Source of the DNA: a virus
Length of the DNA stretch: 47,285 bases
Direction: 5' to 3' (one strand)
IMG/VR virus record: IMGVR_UViG_3300047444_001245
Coordinates: 1 to 47,285 of that record
This document shows, in pieces, positions 9,245-20,170 of the stretch. Numbering within the stretch: position 1 is the stretch's first letter; the number at the start of each line of letters is the position of its first letter. A model generated the notes under the pieces. It was not told the origin of the DNA, made no database searches, and saw nothing but the letters and a program-made list of their open reading frames with translations. The position numbers and the translations under genes are program-made.

Positions 9245-11470
9245 TTGGCCAGCCCGAACAATTCGATTGTCATCCGCCCGCTGACGCAGCTGGCGTCGCT
9301 GTTCTCCGACAAGAAGCCGGCGTTCGAGGCCCCGGCGGGCTACATCGAGGGCGTCGACGCCGCGAAGTGGCCGTCGCCGCTGCAGCCCGTCGCGCCGATG
9401 GGCCCCGCCGGCACCGAGCCGAAGGCCTTCCAGTTCTACGAGGGGCAGAACCTGCAGTGGACGCCGCGCTTCGACGCGGAGTACTCCGCCGCGGACCTCA
9501 AGGCGCTCGCCACCTACCCGCTCGTCCGCATCTGCATCGAGAACGTGAAGGACGTGATCTGCGACATGCCGTGGCAGATCCGGCCGCGCCCGACGCCGGG
9601 CGAGTCGATCAAGGAGAACGCGAAGCGCGCGGCCGGCGACAAGGCGATCCTGAAGGCGACGCGCTTCCTCGAGCGCCCCGACGGCCAGCACACGTGGGAC
9701 GAGTGGCTGCGCCCGTGGCTCGACGACCTCATCGTGATCGACGCGCCCACGGTCCTGGTGCGCCGCAACTTCGGCAAGGGCACGCGGCCCGGCGGCGACG
9801 GCGACCTCCGCGAGCTGCGCGTCCTGCGCGGCGACTCGATCTCCGTGTACATCGACCAGAACGGCTGGAGCCCGAACCCGCCGTCGATCGCGTACGCCCA
9901 AAACTGGTGGGGCCTGCCGCTCGTGGACATGACGCGCGACCAGTGCCTGTACCGCCCGCGGAACATCGCGCCGCGCAACACGGTGGCGTCGCAGCTCTAC
10001 GGCTACTCCCCGGTCGAGCAGCTCGCGCCGGAGCTGCAGATCGGGATCGCCCGTCTCGCGTTCGTCCTCGCCTACTACAAGGACGGCTCGGTGCCGGGGG
10101 TCGTGCAGGTCGCGCCGAAGGGGACGACGCCGGAGCAGATCAAGGAGGCGGCGCAGTGGATCAACTCGGACATCGCGGGGAACCTCGCGAAGCGCCGGCA
10201 GTGGAACATCATCCAGGGCTTCCAGGAGGACGGGAAGGCCGAGCAGATCATCATGACGAAGGAGCCGCTGCTCGCCGACCTCTACGACGAGAAGCACATC
10301 CGCGAGGTGGCGTTCGGCATCGGCGTCAGCCCGCAGCGGCTGATGAAGTCGATGAACCGCGCGTCGGCGGAGCAGTCGGACGACGCGGCGGAGACCGAGG
10401 GCACGCGGCCGTACGTGCGGTCGGTGCGCGGCCTCATGAACCACGTGCTGCAGGTGGTGATGGGGCTCGAGGAGTACGAGTTCGTCATCGACCCGGTCAA
10501 AGAGCTGGACATGGCGAAGCAGGCCGAGGCGCTGACGGCGAAGGTCGGCAAGGCGCTGATGACGCCGAACGAGGGCCGCGAGGCGCTGGGCCTCGACCGC
10601 GACCCGACGCCCGAGGCCGACAAGCTCGGCGTGATCACAGGCACGGGCTTCGTGACGCTCGAGCAGACGGCGCAGGCGGCGAACACCGCGGCGCAGGCCG
10701 CAGTTCAACCGGGAGGGAAAGATGGCGGTGATAACGCGCCGGTGGGTAAGCCGGGAGGAGCTGGAAAGGGAGCGGACGCGGGAAAGTCCGCGCGCTCGAA
10801 ACCTAATGGACATGATCCAGCGGAGGATCATCGCGTACCGCGACCAGTTAACTCGCTCGGGTTCGCCGCGGGAGCCGCGCCCGTAGCGCCTCCGGCGGTC
10901 GGCAAGTACTCCGAGGACGAGGCGCGCGACGAGCAGGGGCGGTGGACAGAGGGCGGAGAATCTTCGGCTGATGAGAAGGAGAAGTTGAGTAAAGCATTAT
11001 GGAGCTGGCAGTCGGGCAGCGATGATGAAGGGGCAAAGGCCGAGCATTACATCCAATCGGGCGAGCCGGAAGGCAGCGAGATCGTGAAGGGCATCCGGAA
11101 CGAGACCTTCGGCGTGACGGCCTGGCGCGGCATGTTCGTTGAGAACGACGACGCGATCCTTAAGCTGAAGACGGGGGACACGCTGCAGCTGATGCCGAGC
11201 TCGTTCAGCGATGACCGTAAAGTAGCCGCAAAGTTTTCAACGGGTGAGACGCTCGGGATGGAGGGCGAAAAGGGCTGGGGTGGGGTCATATTGCGCGTTA
11301 ACAAGACCGCTGATGGGGCCGAGCCGCACGGCATCATGGTCGGCGACCGCGGTCATCCGGCTTGGCGGCAAGAAAATGAGATCATCACCGGCGGTCAGTT
11401 CACCGTGACGCGCGTCAACAAGTCGAAGAAGGCTACAACGCTTTTTATCTCGCAGAAGGGGATATTCTGA
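9245..11470 (+). CDS. Portal protein fused to an ART-like domain
   Basis: The 741-residue product starts at TTG 9245 (MASPNNSIVIRPL). Residues about 60-470 are a phage portal, the dodecameric DNA gate at the head vertex (GYSPVEQLAPELQIGIARLA; AFGIGVSPQRLM; MTPNEGREALGLD). A Gly/Pro/Lys linker (490-550) leads to the motif KYSEDEARDEQGRW at 554-567. The last 160 residues look like an R-S-E class ADP-ribosyltransferase: AWRG with R628, SSFS with S653/S655, and biglutamate E710-N-E712 in RQENEIITGG. ADP-ribosylation of a host protein is therefore possible; the ART call is from motifs only. A portal is normally about 450-550 residues, so the extension is exceptional. Confidence 0.85.
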   Translation: MASPNNSIVIRPLTQLASLFSDKKPAFEAPAGYIEGVDAAKWPSPLQPVAPMGPAGTEPKAFQFYEGQNLQWTPRFDAEYSAADLKALATYPLVRICIENVKDVICDMPWQIRPRPTPGESIKENAKRAAGDKAILKATRFLERPDGQHTWDEWLRPWLDDLIVIDAPTVLVRRNFGKGTRPGGDGDLRELRVLRGDSISVYIDQNGWSPNPPSIAYAQNWWGLPLVDMTRDQCLYRPRNIAPRNTVASQLYGYSPVEQLAPELQIGIARLAFVLAYYKDGSVPGVVQVAPKGTTPEQIKEAAQWINSDIAGNLAKRRQWNIIQGFQEDGKAEQIIMTKEPLLADLYDEKHIREVAFGIGVSPQRLMKSMNRASAEQSDDAAETEGTRPYVRSVRGLMNHVLQVVMGLEEYEFVIDPVKELDMAKQAEALTAKVGKALMTPNEGREALGLDRDPTPEADKLGVITGTGFVTLEQTAQAANTAAQAAVQPGGKDGGDNAPVGKPGGAGKGADAGKSARSKPNGHDPAEDHRVPRPVNSLGFAAGAAPVAPPAVGKYSEDEARDEQGRWTEGGESSADEKEKLSKALWSWQSGSDDEGAKAEHYIQSGEPEGSEIVKGIRNETFGVTAWRGMFVENDDAILKLKTGDTLQLMPSSFSDDRKVAAKFSTGETLGMEGEKGWGGVILRVNKTADGAEPHGIMVGDRGHPAWRQENEIITGGQFTVTRVNKSKKATTLFISQKGIF
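10722..10886 (+). CDS. Possible overprinted small gene inside the portal linker
   Basis: In another frame within the portal's low-complexity linker, ATG 10722 follows GGGAGGGAAAG and opens a 54-residue frame ending at TAG 10884-10886. The product is a charged amphipathic helix (REELERERTRESPRARNLMD, then MIQRRIIAYRDQL) and reads more like a normal small phage protein than the Gly/Ala/Pro sequence of the portal frame. The good ribosome binding site and composition suggest either true overprinting or that this was an original gene behind a shorter portal, later read through when the cargo was attached. Not proven. Confidence 0.35.
   Translation: MAVITRRWVSREELERERTRESPRARNLMDMIQRRIIAYRDQLTRSGSPREPRP
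10904..10945 (+). repeat. Cargo tag copy 1 (portal)
   Basis: Encodes KYSEDEARDEQGRW at portal residues 554-567, immediately before the R-S-E ART-like domain. Its 42 bases differ from tag copy 2 (11560-11601) at only two positions. Confidence 0.85.
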
Positions 11471-11472
11471 CC

Positions 11473-14391
11473 GTGCAGATTGTCGAGTACAACTCGGAGC
11501 TGTTGACGGTGCCATTCGACCCGCAGCGGATGACGCGCGGGAAGACGGAGAAGCTCGCCAAGTACTCGGAGGACGAGGCGCGCGACGAGCAGGGACGGTG
11601 GAGCTCTTCCGGCGGCTCCGGCGAGAACCGCCAGTTTCTCGACATCGTCGCCGAAGACCACGGGGCGAAGGTTGACTCGAGCGGCGTGACGGGCTCATTC
11701 GAACTGAAGCGCGACGAGACGTTCTACCGCGCGGAGGCCAATCCCGATCGCGCGCGGCGCTCTGGGTTGAAGGCGAGCCTGCCGCCGGAGGTAGCGGAGG
11801 GCGCCGACAAGGAAGATCACAAGGCCCTGACCGGCGTGTACCTCACCGATAAGGAGACGGCGACCGCGTACTTGAACGGACGCCTCGATGGCAAGGGCGA
11901 GGTGATCGCGGTCCATCTTCCGGAGGGGACGAGAATCTACCAGGACCCCGTGGACGACGAGGCGATCTTCGTGCGGGAGAGCCTTCCATCGCACGCGGTC
12001 GAGGGCGGCAGGCAGATGAGGGTATTCAAGCTCTCCCACGGCGACGCGCGGACGATCATCCACCCGGGGCGCCTAGCGCCGACGTCGATCCTGGCGAAGC
12101 ACCGGCTCGAGAAGATCCTGGCCAACGCCTTCGGCAAGATGCGCCGGAAGACGGTGCGCGCGCTGCGGCGCGAGGCGGGGATCGCGGCGAAGGCGCTGCT
12201 CTCCAAGCAGCGCAAGTTTGACTCCGTGCAGTTCAATCTCGACGAGGCGGACGCAAAGAAGGTCCTCGCGATCGCGGTCGACGAGCAGGACTGGGACCCG
12301 AAGGGACGCGACCTCGAGCCGCACGCCACGGTGCTGTTCGGCTTTGACGGCGCGACGTTCGACCAGGTCGAGGCGCTCACGCGCGGCACGGGTGACTGCC
12401 CCGCGGAGCTCGGCGAGCTGTTCTGCTTCCCGGCCGGAGACCACGGGTCGCCGCTGGTGATCCGGTTGAAGTCGCCGGAGCTGGTCGCGCTGCACGACAG
12501 GCTGTCCGCGCTGCCGCACACGGACACGCACGATGAATACATCCCGCACGTCTGCGTCGGCTATCTTAAGCCCGAGGCGGCGGAGAAGTATGTCGGTAAA
12601 GACTATGCGGGCCAGGGTGAGACGATCGTCCTCAAGGATCTGATCTTCTCGCTGCGCGACAAGACGCGCTTGTCGTTGGAGAAGGCGCTCGAGTATCTGA
12701 AGTATAGTGAAGATCAAGCAAGAGATGAGAATGGAAGATTTGCGTCTGAAGAAGACTCTGAGGGACGCGCAAAAACAATTTTGTACCATGGAACTACCGA
12801 AGAGGTAGCAAAAAAGATTTTTGATGAAGGATTAGACGCTTCAAGAGCTCCTGGGGGAACCTTTGCCACTGATTCCAAGCTTAGCGCGTTGGGGTACGCG
12901 AAGGGAGGAGCAAAATTTGAAGCTATTGAACGGGGAATGTCGAAGGAAGATCGTAACAATCAATTAATCGGATTGGTGATCATAAAAGACCCCGAAAAAG
13001 CGGGGTTCAAGTATCTTCAAGGAGCCCCGGGATATTATTCTTCTACTAGCAATGTTTCTCCTAACTTTGTAGATCGTGTTGAATTTTATAGATATGGAGA
13101 TATATCGTCTTCAAATCCAAAACCAGCAAAAATTATTTCTAAAAATGCGTCAAAAAATAGTGTGGAAATTTACGTTCCAATTTTACTGAAAGAAAGTAAG
13201 ACTGAGAAATTTACGAAGGCACTCGACGACGCGACGCAGCAGATCCTCGACTCGCTCGCCGCGGAGTGGGAGGCGCTGGCGAAGGCCGCCGTCCTGCCGC
13301 TGACCGACGCGTCGACCGCGGGCGCCGACGCCGGCGCGCTGCAGCTCGACATCACCGGCGACGACATGCTCGGCCGGGTCAACACCGTGGCCCGGGAGTG
13401 GGCCGCGGACCGCGCCGCGGAGCTGGTCGGCATGCGGTTCACGGATGACGGCGACCTGGTTCCGAACCCCGACGCGCGCTGGGCGATCTCCGATACGACG
13501 CGGGAGAGGTTGCGCGACGCGATCGCGCGGGTCTTCGCGGAGGAGCAGCCGACGCTGAAGGACATCGAGGACGCGATCGCGGACGCGGGGATCTTCGACG
13601 ACAACCGCGCGACGATGATCGCCCGGACCGAGGTCAGCCGGGCGCAGGCGCAGGGGAACCTCGACGCCTGGAAGACGAGCGGGATGGTCGAAGAGGTCAA
13701 CTGGGTCCTGTCCGACGATCACGATGACGATGATATCTGCAATGAGAACGAAGAGGAGAGCCCGTACGCGCTGGGCGAGGTGCCGGAGTTCCCGGCGCAC
13801 CCCAACTGCATGTGCGGGCTGACGCTCGGCCGGCTGAAGGGCGAGCCGGAGGACGCGGAGAAGGTGCTGAAATACTCGGATGACGAGGATCGCGACGAAA
13901 ATGGACGTTGGACCGGTGGTGCCACGCACGGAACGTCGGTGTCCGCGGCGAAGAAGATCATGAAGGAAGGAATTAAATCAGGAAAAGTTTTAGGAAATGG
14001 GCAGCTCGGCTCTGCCTATGTCTCGCGCGACCCCGTGGTGGCGTTGTCGTTCGCGAAAGAAGCTGGGATGAACGAGTACACGCGGCTTTATCCTAACGCG
14101 CGCGTCGCTGAGCTTGACAGCAAAGCGAAGGCCGCTCTCGTGGTTCTCAAGCCTGGCGTAGAAAATAATTGGACACAGGAGCCCGATCGCCAGATTTTTA
14201 GGACCGAGAAGACGATTCCGGCTTCTAAGATTGATCGTGTGGAGATTTATTCGGTGAAGTCGATCAAGGATAGCATTGGCACGGGAAGTCTTCCGACCCC
14301 GGAAAAAATTATTCGCAAGGACGCTTCATCATCTGAGGAAGACACATTTTACATCGCGGCAATCTTTGAAGAGAATGCGGAGGAGAGCTAG
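11473..14391 (+). CDS. MuF head-morphogenesis protein with ART and 2H cargo
   Basis: A 972-residue mosaic from GTG 11473. In order: tag (30-43); ART-like region 80-190 (FYRAE with R86, GVYLTD with Y123, IFVRE); 2H-phosphoesterase 265-400 with the two signatures PHATVLFG (H284-x-T286) and PHVCVGYL (H359-x-C361); tag (410-423); ART-like 435-560 (LYHGTTEE, H439; DRVEFY, E537); MuF/SPP1-gp7 domain about 600-795 (TMIARTEVSRAQAQG; HPNCMCGLTLGRL); tag (800-813); ART-like 817-950 (THGTS, H819; AYVS, Y849; DRVEIY, E924). MuF proteins bind the portal and enter the head in low copy. DNA of the second and third ART modules is clearly AT-richer. Enzyme activities are inferred from motifs. Confidence 0.85.
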   Translation: MQIVEYNSELLTVPFDPQRMTRGKTEKLAKYSEDEARDEQGRWSSSGGSGENRQFLDIVAEDHGAKVDSSGVTGSFELKRDETFYRAEANPDRARRSGLKASLPPEVAEGADKEDHKALTGVYLTDKETATAYLNGRLDGKGEVIAVHLPEGTRIYQDPVDDEAIFVRESLPSHAVEGGRQMRVFKLSHGDARTIIHPGRLAPTSILAKHRLEKILANAFGKMRRKTVRALRREAGIAAKALLSKQRKFDSVQFNLDEADAKKVLAIAVDEQDWDPKGRDLEPHATVLFGFDGATFDQVEALTRGTGDCPAELGELFCFPAGDHGSPLVIRLKSPELVALHDRLSALPHTDTHDEYIPHVCVGYLKPEAAEKYVGKDYAGQGETIVLKDLIFSLRDKTRLSLEKALEYLKYSEDQARDENGRFASEEDSEGRAKTILYHGTTEEVAKKIFDEGLDASRAPGGTFATDSKLSALGYAKGGAKFEAIERGMSKEDRNNQLIGLVIIKDPEKAGFKYLQGAPGYYSSTSNVSPNFVDRVEFYRYGDISSSNPKPAKIISKNASKNSVEIYVPILLKESKTEKFTKALDDATQQILDSLAAEWEALAKAAVLPLTDASTAGADAGALQLDITGDDMLGRVNTVAREWAADRAAELVGMRFTDDGDLVPNPDARWAISDTTRERLRDAIARVFAEEQPTLKDIEDAIADAGIFDDNRATMIARTEVSRAQAQGNLDAWKTSGMVEEVNWVLSDDHDDDDICNENEEESPYALGEVPEFPAHPNCMCGLTLGRLKGEPEDAEKVLKYSDDEDRDENGRWTGGATHGTSVSAAKKIMKEGIKSGKVLGNGQLGSAYVSRDPVVALSFAKEAGMNEYTRLYPNARVAELDSKAKAALVVLKPGVENNWTQEPDRQIFRTEKTIPASKIDRVEIYSVKSIKDSIGTGSLPTPEKIIRKDASSSEEDTFYIAAIFEENAEES
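11560..11601 (+). repeat. Cargo tag copy 2 (MuF N-terminus)
   Basis: Encodes KYSEDEARDEQGRW at residues 30-43 of the MuF protein, before the first ART-like region. Forms a near-identical 42-bp direct repeat with copy 1, 656 bp upstream. Confidence 0.85.
12700..12741 (+). repeat. Cargo tag copy 3 (MuF, after the 2H domain)
   Basis: Encodes KYSEDQARDENGRF at residues 410-423 of the MuF protein. The switch from GC-rich to AT-rich DNA happens within a few bases of this tag, so the tag belongs to the inserted module rather than to the recipient gene. Confidence 0.85.
13870..13911 (+). repeat. Cargo tag copy 4 (after the MuF domain)
   Basis: Encodes KYSDDEDRDENGRW at residues 800-813, directly after the MuF metal-binding end (HPNCMCGLTLGRL) and before the C-terminal ART-like module. 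Confidence 0.85.
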
Positions 14392-14392
14392 C

Positions 14393-16354
14393 ATGCCATA
14401 CTCGACCGTAGATCAGGTTCCGTCCTACGTGCCGGCGGGAAAGCGCGCGCAGTGGATGGCCGTCTGGAACTCGGCGCGCAAGGCCGCGCTGAAGGACGGG
14501 ATGCCGGACAAGGACGCGGAGGCGAAGGCGTTCCGCGAGGCCAACGGCGTCGCCGGGCCCGGGTCGGAGAAGATCACGAAGTATAGTGACGACCAAGAAC
14601 GCGATGATCATGGACGTTGGACCGAGGCAGCTTCAACCAAGAAAGATCATCGTGATGCTATGAAGTGGCACGACGCGAAAGCGGCGGAGGAAGAAGCTGC
14701 AGGACATCCGGTGACGGCAGATTACCACCGTGAAGCTGCAGGAAAACATCAATATGCGGTCAGCATGGCAGGGAAAAATGGTCCTGGTGTTGACCCGGAT
14801 CATTCAAAATCAGCAAATCGATCTTCAAAAGAAGCTAACCGGGCTTCTCAGTACGCGGCAAGACAAGATAAAGAAAAATCATCAGGAGGTGAAATGAAGA
14901 AGACCGAGGTGCCGGACAACGAGAAGCAGAGCCAGGTCGGGGTCGGCTACGAGAACCCGAGCTCCCGGCCGGGCGCGACGTGCGCCGGCTGCGTCCACTT
15001 CATCTCGCCCGACCGCTGCGAGCACGTGCAGGGCCCGATCGCCGCGGCGGCGTGGTGCCTGAAATTCATCAAGTGCGCTGAGGAGGAAAAGACCGTGACG
15101 ACGACGCTCAAGAAGTTCATCCCGTTCGCGAAGGTGGACAACTCGATCGACCCCGCGACCAAGCTGCCGCGCCGCGAGGTGTGGGGCATCGTCACCGCCG
15201 AGGTCCCCGACAAGGAGGACGAGGTCTGCGACTACGCGAAGTCAAAGCCGTTCTACCAGGCGGTGATCGACGAGATGTCCAAGGCCACGGACGGCAGGAA
15301 CATGTTCCCGCTGCGCGAGATGCACGGGCTCTCCGCCGCGGGCAAGTGCATTGGCTTCGAGTTCCGCGACGCCGACCGCGAGATCTTCATGGGCTTCAAG
15401 GTCGTCGACGACCAGGCCTGGAAGAAGGTCGACGAGGGCGTGTACACGGGCTTCAGCCAGGGCGGGTCGCTCGTCGGCGCGCTGGCGCCGGACCCGGTCT
15501 TCGAGGGCTGCATGCGCTACACGGCGAACCCGAGCGAGGTGTCGCTGGTCGACAACCCGTGCCTCGCGGCCGCGCACTTCGCGTACGTGAAGGCGGACGG
15601 CTCGGTCGAGCTGCGTAAGTTCAAGCGGACGGAGGTCGCGCCGACGTCTACGCGGCTCGAGAAGCTGGAAAAAGAAGTTGCGGATCTTCGTAAGGCGACG
15701 GGCACGGCCCCGCTCACGAAGACGGTCGACGGCGAGGCGCTCGCCGCGGACGCGTTCGCGATCGCCGGCGACGCGAAGAAAGTTTCCACGTGGCGGCTGC
15801 CGCTCAGGTTCGCGACGAAGCAGAAGTCGGCGGCCTACGTGGCGCGCGCCGCGCTGCTCGTCAAGTTCAGCCCGAGGCTGTTCACGGACGCGGAGGCGAA
15901 GCAGGCCCTGAAGGCGATCGCGACGGCCGCGGACTGGGCGGGGGTGGACCCGCTGGCCGTCGTCCTCGAGTTCATCAAGGTGGGCGACCTCCTGCGCGGC
16001 GGGCTGCGCAAGCGCGTCAACAAGCTGGCGAAGACCCGGGACCCGGGCCACCGGCTGAGCTTCGTGGACGCGGACCTCGGGAAGATGTCGATCGTCGCGC
16101 AGCGCCCGGCGAACGCGCAGGCGGACCTGGAGAAGGGCATGTACGAGGTCGGGCAGCTCGCCTGCCTCGTGCAGCAGCTCTCGTACCTCGTCTACGCCGC
16201 GGTGTACGAGCGCGAGCAGGAGCAGGACGGGTCGCTTCTCCCGCAGGACCTGACGGAGAACGTCGACGCGCTGCTCGACACGCTCGTCGCGATGCTCGCC
16301 GAGGAGGCGGGCGAGCTCAGCGAGGAGCTGAACTCGCGGGCCCACGGCGCCTAG
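14393..16354 (+). CDS. ChaB-like / cargo / XkdF-like maturation protease
   Basis: 653 residues from ATG 14393 (GGAGGAG upstream). Residues 1-52 resemble a ChaB-type helical domain (VDQVPSYVPAGKRAQW). Tag copy 5 at 63-76 precedes an AT-rich, Lys/His/Ala helical module (77-165). C197, C200, C209 and C222 (CAGC, RCEH, AWCLKF) give a HiPIP-like iron-sulfur or zinc spacing. Residues 235-405 match the XkdF/prohead serine protease group: H311 (REMHGLS), S355 (GFSQGG) and the conserved PSEVSLVDNP. It probably trims scaffold or head proteins during maturation. Residues 415-435 are a short coiled coil, followed by a helical C-terminus. An internal start at 14894 may give a 486-residue form lacking ChaB and cargo. 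Confidence 0.8.
   Translation: MPYSTVDQVPSYVPAGKRAQWMAVWNSARKAALKDGMPDKDAEAKAFREANGVAGPGSEKITKYSDDQERDDHGRWTEAASTKKDHRDAMKWHDAKAAEEEAAGHPVTADYHREAAGKHQYAVSMAGKNGPGVDPDHSKSANRSSKEANRASQYAARQDKEKSSGGEMKKTEVPDNEKQSQVGVGYENPSSRPGATCAGCVHFISPDRCEHVQGPIAAAAWCLKFIKCAEEEKTVTTTLKKFIPFAKVDNSIDPATKLPRREVWGIVTAEVPDKEDEVCDYAKSKPFYQAVIDEMSKATDGRNMFPLREMHGLSAAGKCIGFEFRDADREIFMGFKVVDDQAWKKVDEGVYTGFSQGGSLVGALAPDPVFEGCMRYTANPSEVSLVDNPCLAAAHFAYVKADGSVELRKFKRTEVAPTSTRLEKLEKEVADLRKATGTAPLTKTVDGEALAADAFAIAGDAKKVSTWRLPLRFATKQKSAAYVARAALLVKFSPRLFTDAEAKQALKAIATAADWAGVDPLAVVLEFIKVGDLLRGGLRKRVNKLAKTRDPGHRLSFVDADLGKMSIVAQRPANAQADLEKGMYEVGQLACLVQQLSYLVYAAVYEREQEQDGSLLPQDLTENVDALLDTLVAMLAEEAGELSEELNSRAHGA
14579..14620 (+). 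repeat. Cargo tag copy 5 (protease N-terminal region)
   Basis: Encodes KYSDDQERDDHGRW at residues 63-76 of the protease gene product, between the ChaB-like segment and an AT-rich helical module. Confidence 0.85.
14884..14896 (+). promoter_or_regulatory. Internal Shine-Dalgarno and ATG in the protease gene
   Basis: AGGAGGTG at 14884-14891 is a near-perfect Shine-Dalgarno, followed by an in-frame ATG at 14894. It sits at the end of the AT-rich inserted module and would start the protease at residue 168 (MKKTEVPDNEKQ). A ribosome binding site this strong is unlikely by chance inside a gene and suggests that the protease is also made separately. Confidence 0.6.
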
Positions 16355-18916: not shown

Positions 18917-20170
18917 ATGAAGATCGCGGTGATGTACCCGAAGAACCCGTTCGCGAGCTGGTACACGCTTGGGGGCTACCGGAAGACGCTCGAGGCGATG
19001 GGCCACGAGGTCGTGGCCGTCGAGTTCCCCGGGAACAACGTCGCGGACGTCGAGCGGCTGCAGAAGCTCGCGCCGACGGCGGAGGAGCTGGGCGCCTGCG
19101 ACCTGGTGCTGTCGACGTTCCACGAGTACGTCGTGCCCTGGCTGATGCCGGTCTACGGCCGCGAGGCCTGGGACCGGGTGATGGAGAAGGTCCCGGTGGT
19201 CGCGCGCTTCGACGAGTCGATGGACCGCCACGACCTGGGGCTGAACCCCGCGCGCGTCGAGGAGCTGAAGGCCTGGGCGCACGCGTGGAGCTTTCCCGCG
19301 GCGCAGGACGCGAAGCGGTACGGCGGCGCCTGGCACCCGTTCGGCGCCGACACGGAGATGTTCAGGCCCTACTGCCGGTGCGCGGAGCCGAAGGTGCTGG
19401 TGTCGCGCGATCGCGGCGCGTGGTGCGAGGCCTGCGGAAATTCGCTGAACTTCAAAAACGGAAAGAACCAGTCCGGGAAGTACCGCATCGGCTTCGTCGG
19501 GTCGTTCTACGAGATGCGCGCGAAGTACCTGCGCGCGCTCGCGCCGCTGCTGCCCGACGACCTGACGTTCCACGCGGGTCCGTGCTTCGTGCAGGACCTG
19601 GACGGGGTCGCGGCCGAGGCGTCGACGTTCCTCCTGGCCGAGAACTACGCGAAGCTGAAGATCTTCTTCTGCCTGCCGCCGATGAGCCGCCTGCTGGTCG
19701 CGAAGGTGTTCGAGGTGATGGCGACGGGCACGTTCCTCATGTACCCGCGCCTGCCCGGCGACGCCGGCGAGAACCTGGAGATCTTCCAGGACGGGGTGCA
19801 CCTCGCGTACTACGAGCCGGGGAACCTGAAGAGGAACGCGGCGCAGATCAGGAGCTGGCTCGAGCAGGACGCGGCGCGCGAGGCGATCGCGAAAGCCGGC
19901 GGCGAGCTGGTCAGGTCGCGCAACACGCTGCGCGGGATGCTCGAGTGCCTGGTCGGCATGGCGGGCAAGAAGACCGAGAAGTACGACGCGGACGTGCCCT
20001 ACCGGTTCGAGAACAAGCCCGCCGCGAAGAGCTCGTCGAGTGTGCGGATCTTCGTGCCGCCGACGTCGATTGAGCGCGGGCGAAAGAAGACGATGACGGA
20101 CGCGGAGACGAAAGAGTCGCCGGCCGAGAGATATGACGCCATGCACCTGATCGGCGGAGGCGAAAAGTGA
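18917..20170 (+). CDS. CgeB-like GT-B glycosyltransferase
   Basis: 417 residues from ATG 18917 (AAAGAGGAAAG upstream). The C-terminal half has the CgeB/GT-B signature: SGKYRIGFVGSFYEMR at about 186-201, LKIFFCLPP, then KVFEVMATGTFLMYPRLPG and FQDGVHLAYYEPGNL, which form the nucleotide-sugar binding region. A Cys-rich segment (PYCRC, WCEACGNS) at about 150-176 may bind zinc. It would transfer a sugar to phage or host surface glycan. It opens a run of eight or nine coupled carbohydrate genes. The last 45 residues are a disordered, charged extension. Donor and acceptor are unknown. Confidence 0.8.
   Translation: MKIAVMYPKNPFASWYTLGGYRKTLEAMGHEVVAVEFPGNNVADVERLQKLAPTAEELGACDLVLSTFHEYVVPWLMPVYGREAWDRVMEKVPVVARFDESMDRHDLGLNPARVEELKAWAHAWSFPAAQDAKRYGGAWHPFGADTEMFRPYCRCAEPKVLVSRDRGAWCEACGNSLNFKNGKNQSGKYRIGFVGSFYEMRAKYLRALAPLLPDDLTFHAGPCFVQDLDGVAAEASTFLLAENYAKLKIFFCLPPMSRLLVAKVFEVMATGTFLMYPRLPGDAGENLEIFQDGVHLAYYEPGNLKRNAAQIRSWLEQDAAREAIAKAGGELVRSRNTLRGMLECLVGMAGKKTEKYDADVPYRFENKPAAKSSSSVRIFVPPTSIERGRKKTMTDAETKESPAERYDAMHLIGGGEK

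What the first reader, a model, noticed from the sequence alone, without database searches (positions are those of the whole stretch)
10904..14900. Candidate capsid-borne effector system marked by a five-fold repeated 14-residue tag
KYS(E/D)D(E/Q)xRDxxGR(W/F) occurs at 10904, 11560, 12700, 13870 and 14579, in three consecutive head proteins (portal, MuF, protease). Four copies precede an ART-like module and one a small AT-rich helical module, and three of those stretches are visibly AT-richer than the head genes. Repeated tag plus interchangeable cargo in head proteins suggests a loading, linker or protease-cleavage signal for effectors packaged in the virion and injected. Established parallels: T4 Alt is a packaged ADP-ribosyltransferase, and MuF proteins can carry C-terminal toxins. 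That the tag itself has such a role is my inference.
Basis: partly seen in the sequence, partly recalled or inferred. Interest (0 to 1): 0.95.

Follow-up and report, generated by a model that had tools for sequence, protein, structure and literature searches.

The report
Phage cargo tag before effector domains
A short 14-letter protein tag sits in front of many different toxin-like enzymes in uncultured phages, some fused to head proteins and some standing alone, and may mark them as cargo for the virus particle.

Summary
KYSxD(E/Q)xRDxxGR(W/F) occurs five times, at the stated places, in portal, MuF and protease ORFs, with no control match. It is widespread: 67 viral-contig stretches against 0 for a reversed pattern, but 2 stretches in 84,980 prokaryote genomes. 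The families found most often before it are portal, head protease and head-morphogenesis/MuF; after it come many effector families: ADP-ribosyltransferases, zeta toxins, CdiA-type RNases, glutamine deamidases, GNATs. It also opens free-standing genes, among them a zeta-type kinase and an ART. At least 50 residues follow it in 147 of 151 cases. Tags of one phage share a dialect (0.66 against 0.49, GC-matched) although synonymous codons are largely randomised (identity 0.55, expected 0.47), and tags follow the phage rather than the cargo. Best reading: an address tag recruiting interchangeable effectors to the head through a phage-specific partner. Cleavage site and passive junction remain rivals. 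There are no virion data. Eight paper searches listed nothing that by title or abstract describes such a tag.

The parts
9245..10903 (+). Portal protein, part before tag 1
   Evidence: PF04860 7.7e-18; phrog_2662 portal 8e-47; mechanical TTG start, true start not determined
10904..10945 (+). Tag 1, KYSEDEARDEQGRW
10946..11467 (+). Module A, ART-like by motif only (R, SSFS, ENE), at the portal C-terminus
   Evidence: homologue at 35% identity in a separate ORF of L100, behind a different tag, keeping R, SSFS and QKE; no Pfam match, no ART in PDB; model pLDDT 40
11560..11601 (+). Tag 2, KYSEDEARDEQGRW, about 30 residues from the GTG start of the MuF ORF
11605..12117 (+). Module B, ART-like by motif only
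   Evidence: no library match there; PDB search gave only a helicase at E 0.04
12286..12591 (+). 2H phosphoesterase (2'-5' RNA ligase superfamily; Acb1 sub-threshold), no tag directly in front
   Evidence: PF13563 27.4 bits (cut-off 27), Acb1 22.0 (cut-off 27); phrog_755 1.4e-11
12700..12741 (+). Tag 3, KYSEDQARDENGRF; third-position GC falls from 0.93 to 0.20 at its first codons
12745..13227 (+). Module C, ART of PARP/Tpt1 type; GC 0.40 with its tag
   Evidence: ART-PolyVal 19.2 bits, sub-threshold; profile to PARP12 9.6e-5 over part of the domain; model pLDDT 76, best rows ARTs, Z 8.0 down
13483..13824 (+). MuF head-morphogenesis domain
   Evidence: phrog_2662 7.5e-15, phrog_1657 1.2e-13; PF04233 20.4 bits, sub-threshold
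13870..13911 (+). Tag 4, KYSDDEDRDENGRW
13915..14388 (+). Module D, ART paralogous to C, C-terminal to MuF
14579..14620 (+). Tag 5, KYSDDQERDDHGRW, residue 63 from the likely ATG at 14393 of the protease ORF
14621..14893 (+). Small AT-rich module, helical and His/Ala-rich by eye
   Evidence: no Pfam match in the ORF
15173..15601 (+). Head maturation protease domain
   Evidence: iterated profiles seeded from proteases annotated in Alicyclobacillus phage MMB025 and Arthrobacter phage Mufasa8 match at 3e-42 and 7e-13, window possibly in the profiles; PHROG head maturation protease only 0.01

Best explanation
The tag is an address peptide for virion cargo. A cassette is [tag, often a Gly/Ser linker, effector]. 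Cassettes are added to portal, MuF and protease, strung together into polyproteins, or kept as free-standing genes with the tag near the N-terminus. A head-assembly component of the same phage recognises the tag and draws the cargo into the prohead; on infection the effectors leave with the DNA and act early. In the window the cargo would be two ARTs, two ART-like modules and a helical module, plus an untagged 2H phosphoesterase, to modify host proteins and to degrade defence nucleotides or process RNA ends. Shown here: recurrence, polarity, association of carriers and cargo, some free-standing use, exchangeable cargo, a phage-specific dialect. Inferred: recognition by a head partner, packaging, injection, targets.
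For: Before the tag (95 segments): portal phrog_2662 in 29, head maturation protease phrog_595 in 15, head morphogenesis phrog_2468 in 14; families overlap. After it: effector-type Pfam families in two sets of 113 and 106 segments. Polarity: of 151 last tags with a complete 3' end, 4 have under 50 residues behind. Free-standing tagged genes away from the protease region in record G007, among them a zeta-type kinase and an ART, and similar genes in G012; nine tags in two ORFs of G003 separate from portal and protease. Dialect: 55 records, within-phage identity 0.663 against a GC-matched null of 0.486 (maximum 0.524 of 1000 draws), pairs with homologous cargo left out; 0.627 remains for the 80 pairs (28 records) whose codon identity is at or below expectation, null maximum 0.530. 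Tag follows phage, not cargo: 33 of 48 records, 13 against, 2 ties, Wilcoxon p 1e-4. [quoted passage not shown]
Against: Cargo already fused to portal or MuF should not need a second address. The 2H domain has no tag. With my own profiles only 66 of 239 tags had a portal, MuF or protease domain in the same ORF (many loci are fragments). No partner could be named: tag similarity against portal r 0.055 (p 0.21, n 50), MuF r 0.256 (p 0.001, n 42), protease r -0.012 (p 0.55, n 28), and the MuF signal is gone on common sets of 20, 16 and 13 records, where one partial test (portal given MuF, n 13) reached p 0.023. Dialect could be old shared ancestry kept by purifying selection. In the window two or three tags seem to have come in with their AT-rich cargo. 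The small genes with the shared leader have no recognised cargo function. No virion proteomics.
Confidence: 0.48

Rival explanations
1. The tag is a processing site: the prohead protease (or another protease) cuts at or beside it during maturation and frees each effector from portal, MuF, protease or polyprotein.
For: Tags lie between head protein and cargo and between successive cargoes; a protease gene stands beside them in the window; fused cargo must be released if it is to be injected; a dialect would fit a phage-specific protease.
Against: Tag similarity does not track protease similarity (r -0.012, p 0.55, n 28; small sample). In the window no tag lies between module C and MuF, or between the helical module and the protease, so cutting at tags leaves them joined. 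Some free-standing proteins carry the tag near the N-terminus, where little would be cut off. Nothing outside the three ORFs of the window, the likely capsid and scaffold ORFs included, matches the pattern.
Confidence: 0.19
2. The tag is only a junction: a conserved, well tolerated linker start, and perhaps a preferred recombination point, at which cargo modules are swapped, with no recognition by anything.
For: A Gly/Ser stretch often follows it. Composition breaks are commoner at tags than at random places in the same ORFs, 31 of 184 (0.168) against 0.092 of 2763; in the window breaks fall at tags 3 and 5, less cleanly 4. Homologous cargo sits behind different carriers.
Against: Conservation is at protein level: tags 1 and 3 of the window agree at 11 of 14 residues, 9 of those 11 with different codons. 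Free-standing proteins with a tag near the N-terminus have no head domain to be joined to. Strong R, D and G conservation is partly built into my patterns, but the dialect is not.
Confidence: 0.19
3. The tag works after loading: it is an ejection or unfolding signal that lets the protein pass the portal and tail with the DNA.
For: It precedes each module, as a leading end would; it is used in fused and free-standing proteins.
Against: In fusions the modules are internal, so the tag cannot be a free end unless cut; no link to tail genes was tested.
Confidence: 0.1

Closest known systems
MuF polymorphic toxins (Jamet et al. 2017, PMC5576092; outline and section 5 read)
   Same: MuF gene after the portal; toxin-type domains, ADP-ribosyltransferases among them, at the MuF C-terminus
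   Different: Here cargo also sits on portal, protease and free-standing genes, several per protein, behind the same short tag; the window's MuF ORF is followed at once by the protease ORF. The parts read mention no tag
Polyvalent proteins and head-fused ART, 2H and Nudix effectors (PMC5512222 and PMC9503650; passages read)
   Same: Several effector domains in one chain; 2H, ART and Nudix fused to MuF, portal or capsid-processing peptidase, proposed to be packaged and injected
   Different: The passages seen describe domains, not a shared peptide in front of them; whole texts were not read
Phage T4 internal proteins with a capsid targeting sequence (PMC3012670; passages read)
   Same: A conserved short sequence on otherwise diverse defence proteins
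   Different: Here it also recurs inside fusions, up to nine times per record. Sequence similarity to the T4 signal was not tested
Pre-toxin motifs of polymorphic toxins, such as VENN in CdiA (recalled, from no call)
   Same: A conserved motif at the border of a constant carrier and a variable toxin
   Different: Different sequence, repeated in one chain, and on several carriers

Membership tests
MuF polymorphic toxins | MuF domain encoded directly downstream of the portal | tested here: met
MuF polymorphic toxins | Toxin-type domain C-terminal to MuF | tested here: met
   module D, paralogous to ART module C
MuF polymorphic toxins | Small downstream ORF, immunity-like (89.4% of toxin genes in PMC5576092) | tested here: not met
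   MuF ORF ends 14391; likely ATG of the protease ORF at 14393
MuF polymorphic toxins | Temperate phages, mainly of Firmicutes | tested here: inconclusive
   2 stretches in 84,980 prokaryote genomes with the strict pattern; lifestyle and host of the window phage not tested
Polyvalent proteins | Several effector domains in one phage polypeptide | tested here: met
   MuF ORF: ART-like, 2H, ART, MuF, ART
Polyvalent proteins | Packaged in the virion and injected | not testable with these tools
   needs virion proteomics
T4-type capsid targeting sequence | Short conserved N-terminal sequence on unrelated internal proteins | tested here: inconclusive
   N-terminal tags on free-standing genes of G007 and G012, but whether these proteins are in virions is unknown; in the window tag 2 is near an ORF start, the others internal
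T4-type capsid targeting sequence | Directs foreign protein into the head | not testable with these tools
   needs a reporter experiment
ADP-ribosyltransferase fold (module C) | ART fold | tested here: met
   model pLDDT 76; top Z 8.0, rmsd 3.9, 114 aligned; rows 1-25 ARTs by title and my knowledge (the tool warns that Z under 8 may be a common arrangement); profile to PARP12 9.6e-5; L100 homologue matches Pfam PARP, 35.5 bits over a cut-off of 26.7. Plain Foldseek best E only 0.13
ADP-ribosyltransferase fold (modules A and B) | ART fold | tested here: inconclusive
   motif by eye; no ART match; A model pLDDT 40

The most novel reading that the evidence does not exclude
A general cargo-address system of tailed phages: one 14-residue peptide, read by a phage-specific head component, by which any effector, fused or free, can be enrolled for packaging and injection. 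Phages would swap cargo freely while each keeps its own dialect of the address.
Probability: 0.4. Interest if true: 0.92.

Novelty: new variant of a known kind. Interest (0 to 1): 0.8.

Why it matters
Head-packaged effectors are widely predicted but hard to recognise. A shared tag would be a search key for injected effectors, many of unknown fold, and would make testable how heads of this type choose their cargo. If it works as an address, a reporter fused to it would test protein delivery by phages directly. The domains seen behind tags (ARTs, zeta-type kinases, RNases, an NMNAT-like enzyme and others) suggest an arsenal of host takeover and counter-defence.

Tried and rejected
Chance: rejected; reversed patterns gave 0 in viral contigs and 0 in all 30 records. 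No reversed control was run for the KYS-blind pattern.

DNA repeat or recent duplication: rejected as the whole account, since shared residues often use different codons. Codon identity is still above expectation (0.547 against 0.466), so some recent copying is possible.

Composition bias as the cause of the dialect: rejected with a GC-matched null.

Naming the partner by tag against head-protein similarity: inconclusive.

Cultured phages with the tag: a 22-residue consensus found nothing in 50,697 phage records, a 20-residue one found one weak match (E 1) in Nocardia phage P3.1, a 48-residue leader+tag query three matches at E 9 to 10. Short tblastn queries are insensitive, so this is no proof of absence. 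The core of the tag is absent from the stretches fetched of Polewnik, Mufasa8, MMB025, Troll4 and P3.1; in P3.1 only a looser form is seen.

Structure of module A with its tag: model unusable, pLDDT 40. A ChaB-like N-terminus of the protease ORF is my recall and has no Pfam match.

Papers: exact tag strings, 0 papers; function terms listed nothing on such a tag by title or abstract start. Supplements and preprints were not searched.

Rows dropped: loci that repeat the window's own phage (L001-L007, L014, L062, L075) and duplicate tags were left out of the counts. In some searches and 98 locus L153 was taken for a separate record though it belongs with L021 and L140; one search repeats the main tests with this mended.

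Full report
What is in the window. Five copies of the tag stand at 10904, 11560, 12700, 13870 and 14579, all on the + strand, with no match for the reversed pattern. The order is: portal, tag 1, module A; in the next ORF a start of about 30 residues, tag 2, module B, a 2H phosphoesterase, tag 3, module C, MuF, tag 4, module D; then the protease ORF with tag 5, a small helical-looking module and the protease domain. An 87 kb record whose portal is 100% identical holds five tags, all within 3.7 kb (G001).

Modules. C and D are paralogues with ART character: PARP12 at 9.6e-5 and Tpt1/KptA at about 1e-3 by profile, and a model (pLDDT 76) whose 25 best structural rows are ARTs by title and my knowledge, Z 8.0 to 4.0; plain Foldseek was weak (best E 0.13). 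Their homologue in L100 matches Pfam PARP above its cut-off. A and B are ART-like by motif only. A has a homologue in L100 that keeps R, SSFS and (E/Q)xE but lies in a separate ORF behind a different tag, DFNPDQPRDAHGRF. The 2H domain (PF13563, phrog_755; Acb1 sub-threshold) is untagged.

The tag elsewhere. The strict pattern gave 67 stretches in viral contigs, a reversed pattern 0, and 2 in 84,980 prokaryote genomes, in an Armatimonadetes MAG and Rhodoblastus acidophilus. A second pattern, blind to KYS, gave 83 stretches (no reversed control). In 99 tags from 63 of the loci L082-L152, position -3 was Y in 62% and F in 25%, position -1 was P in 56%, and Gly was common from two residues after the tag on (the GG there is part of the search pattern). 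Consensus: (K/A/R)(Y/F)(S/N/D)(P/E)DQPRDExGR(W/F), then often Gly/Ser. In the Pfam and NCBIfam tallies no single family matches more than 9 of 113 segments that begin with the tag, so neither library seems to hold it; a few PHROGs overlap it (phrog_38358, 34645, 6879).

Carriers and cargo. Of 95 segments in front of first tags, 29 match a portal family, 15 a head maturation protease and 14 a head-morphogenesis family (families overlap and 25 of 95 families are shown). With my own profiles 66 of 239 tags have a portal, MuF or protease domain in the same ORF and 173 do not; many loci are fragments. Of 113 segments behind tags, Pfam finds ADPrib_exo_Tox 9, ART 5, ART-PolyVal 4, glutamine deamidase 3, pyrophosphatase 2, ferritin 2, PI3/4-kinase-like 2, GNAT 2, and single TopoIB, Ntox37, zeta toxin and Tox-REase-5 (25 of 32 families shown); NCBIfam adds NMNAT-like and Dps, 2 each. 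In a second set of 106: zeta toxin 8, ART-PolyVal 4, ADPrib_exo_Tox 3, GNAT 3, CdiA RNase A 2, CdiA tRNase 2 (25 of 31 families shown). In per-protein tables some domains begin about 12 to 42 residues after the tag start (L009, L043, L063, L025, L013), others 100 to 600 residues later (InPase in L043, TopoIB in L036, ART in L047).

Free-standing genes. Record G007 carries, 32 to 38 kb from the tags beside its protease, a run of separate genes: a zeta-type kinase (Pfam 1.1e-21) with the tag at residue 15, a two-tag ORF with an ART (3.6e-7) and the tag at residue 28, and five small genes with a shared leader. G012 has three small genes with the same leader and a two-tag ORF. The leader runs MxxxxxExxxYLxxxxxxGGxxGxxAxSxLxK up to the tag. 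Some members have degenerate tags, one shows no clear tag, and the five that I scanned, four of G007 and one of G012, match no Pfam family. G003 has nine tags in two ORFs separate from portal and protease. So the tag does not need a head-protein fusion in the same ORF.

Polarity and place. Of 151 last tags with a complete 3' end, 4 have fewer than 50 residues after them. In loci with a portal all 102 tags are on its strand, 96 downstream of it and 92 within 8 kb; the loci are short, so the nearness is partly built in. In 30 whole records, 29 had matches, on one strand in 28 of the 29; the reversed control was 0 (that looser pattern lets serine pass for arginine, so a few matches, such as one in G024, are not tags).

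Dialect. I used 239 tags in 123 records (which mends a record counted twice). With homologous-cargo pairs left out, 55 records average 0.663 identity at 11 variable positions; GC-matched partners give 0.486 and at most 0.524 in 1000 draws. Codon identity at shared residues is 0.547 against 0.466 expected; the 80 pairs (28 records) at or below expectation still reach 0.627 (null maximum 0.530). Tags before homologous cargo in different phages resemble each other little more than random (0.51 against 0.47; 138 of 151 pairs comparable), while own-phage tags give 0.65. By record 33 favour the own phage, 13 the reverse, 2 tie, p 1e-4. This fits matching to a phage-specific partner; old common ancestry within a phage is not excluded.

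Mobility. Third-position GC falls from 0.93-1.00 to 0.20, 0.53 and 0.40 at the first codons of tags 3, 4 and 5, noisily for tag 4, so tag and cargo seem to have entered together at tags 3 and 5. Across 184 tags strong breaks are commoner than at random positions (0.168 against 0.092), the tag siding with the downstream part in 19 of 31, a modest effect. Of 158 homologous cargo pairs, one sits behind a portal in one phage and MuF in another, 15 join a portal carrier with none detected, 37 a MuF carrier with none detected, 100 have none on either side, and 5 have the same carrier.

Mechanism. An address for head loading explains polarity, free-standing use, several carriers and the dialect. A cleavage site explains release from fusions but not N-terminal tags, the missing tag between C and MuF, or the lack of any relation with the protease (n 28). 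A passive junction explains the swaps but not the dialect or the free-standing genes.

Relation to what is known. Effector fusions to MuF, portal and peptidase are known (PMC5576092, PMC5512222, PMC9503650; parts read), and T4 internal proteins share only a targeting sequence (PMC3012670, passages). The tag was in none of the passages read, and searches for its strings gave no paper. I therefore call it a new variant of a known kind.

Noticed in passing
window 12286-12591: 2H phosphoesterase domain inside the MuF polyprotein, with no tag directly in front; similar to a phosphoesterase gene of many Microbacterium phages (34% identity).
   Followed up: partly
window 18917-20170: Glycosyltransferase-like gene (PF13524, 3.5e-8) just after the likely major capsid gene, on the same strand.
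   Followed up: partly
L156:5632-8374 and L159:11864-13420: Eight small genes in two phages that share a leader of about 30 residues, mostly followed by the tag or a degenerate form of it, then unrelated or helical-looking modules; one has the leader but no clear tag.
   Followed up: partly
L155:4246-5699 (Nocardia phage P3.1): Three small head-region genes start with RDxxGR(F/W)-type peptides (MARNYKRDGKGRF, MARNYKRDGRGRF, FNPRQPRDLRGRW), one annotated as capsid maturation protease; perhaps a distant form of the tag in a cultured phage.
   Followed up: partly
L042:937-2925 and L043:2-3088: Unusual cargo: a ferritin-like domain behind a tag in L042 and a cytidylyltransferase-like domain behind a tag in L043 (Dps- and NMNAT-like members).
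   Followed up: no
L025:5812-7899 and L036:2140-4587: Type IB topoisomerase cores behind a tag.
   Followed up: no
hits H37 and H39 (Pseudomonas phages Baskent_P6, H66): Proteins annotated as PLxRFG domain-containing match a stretch of an L009 protein that lies between two tags, another family named after a short motif.
   Followed up: partly
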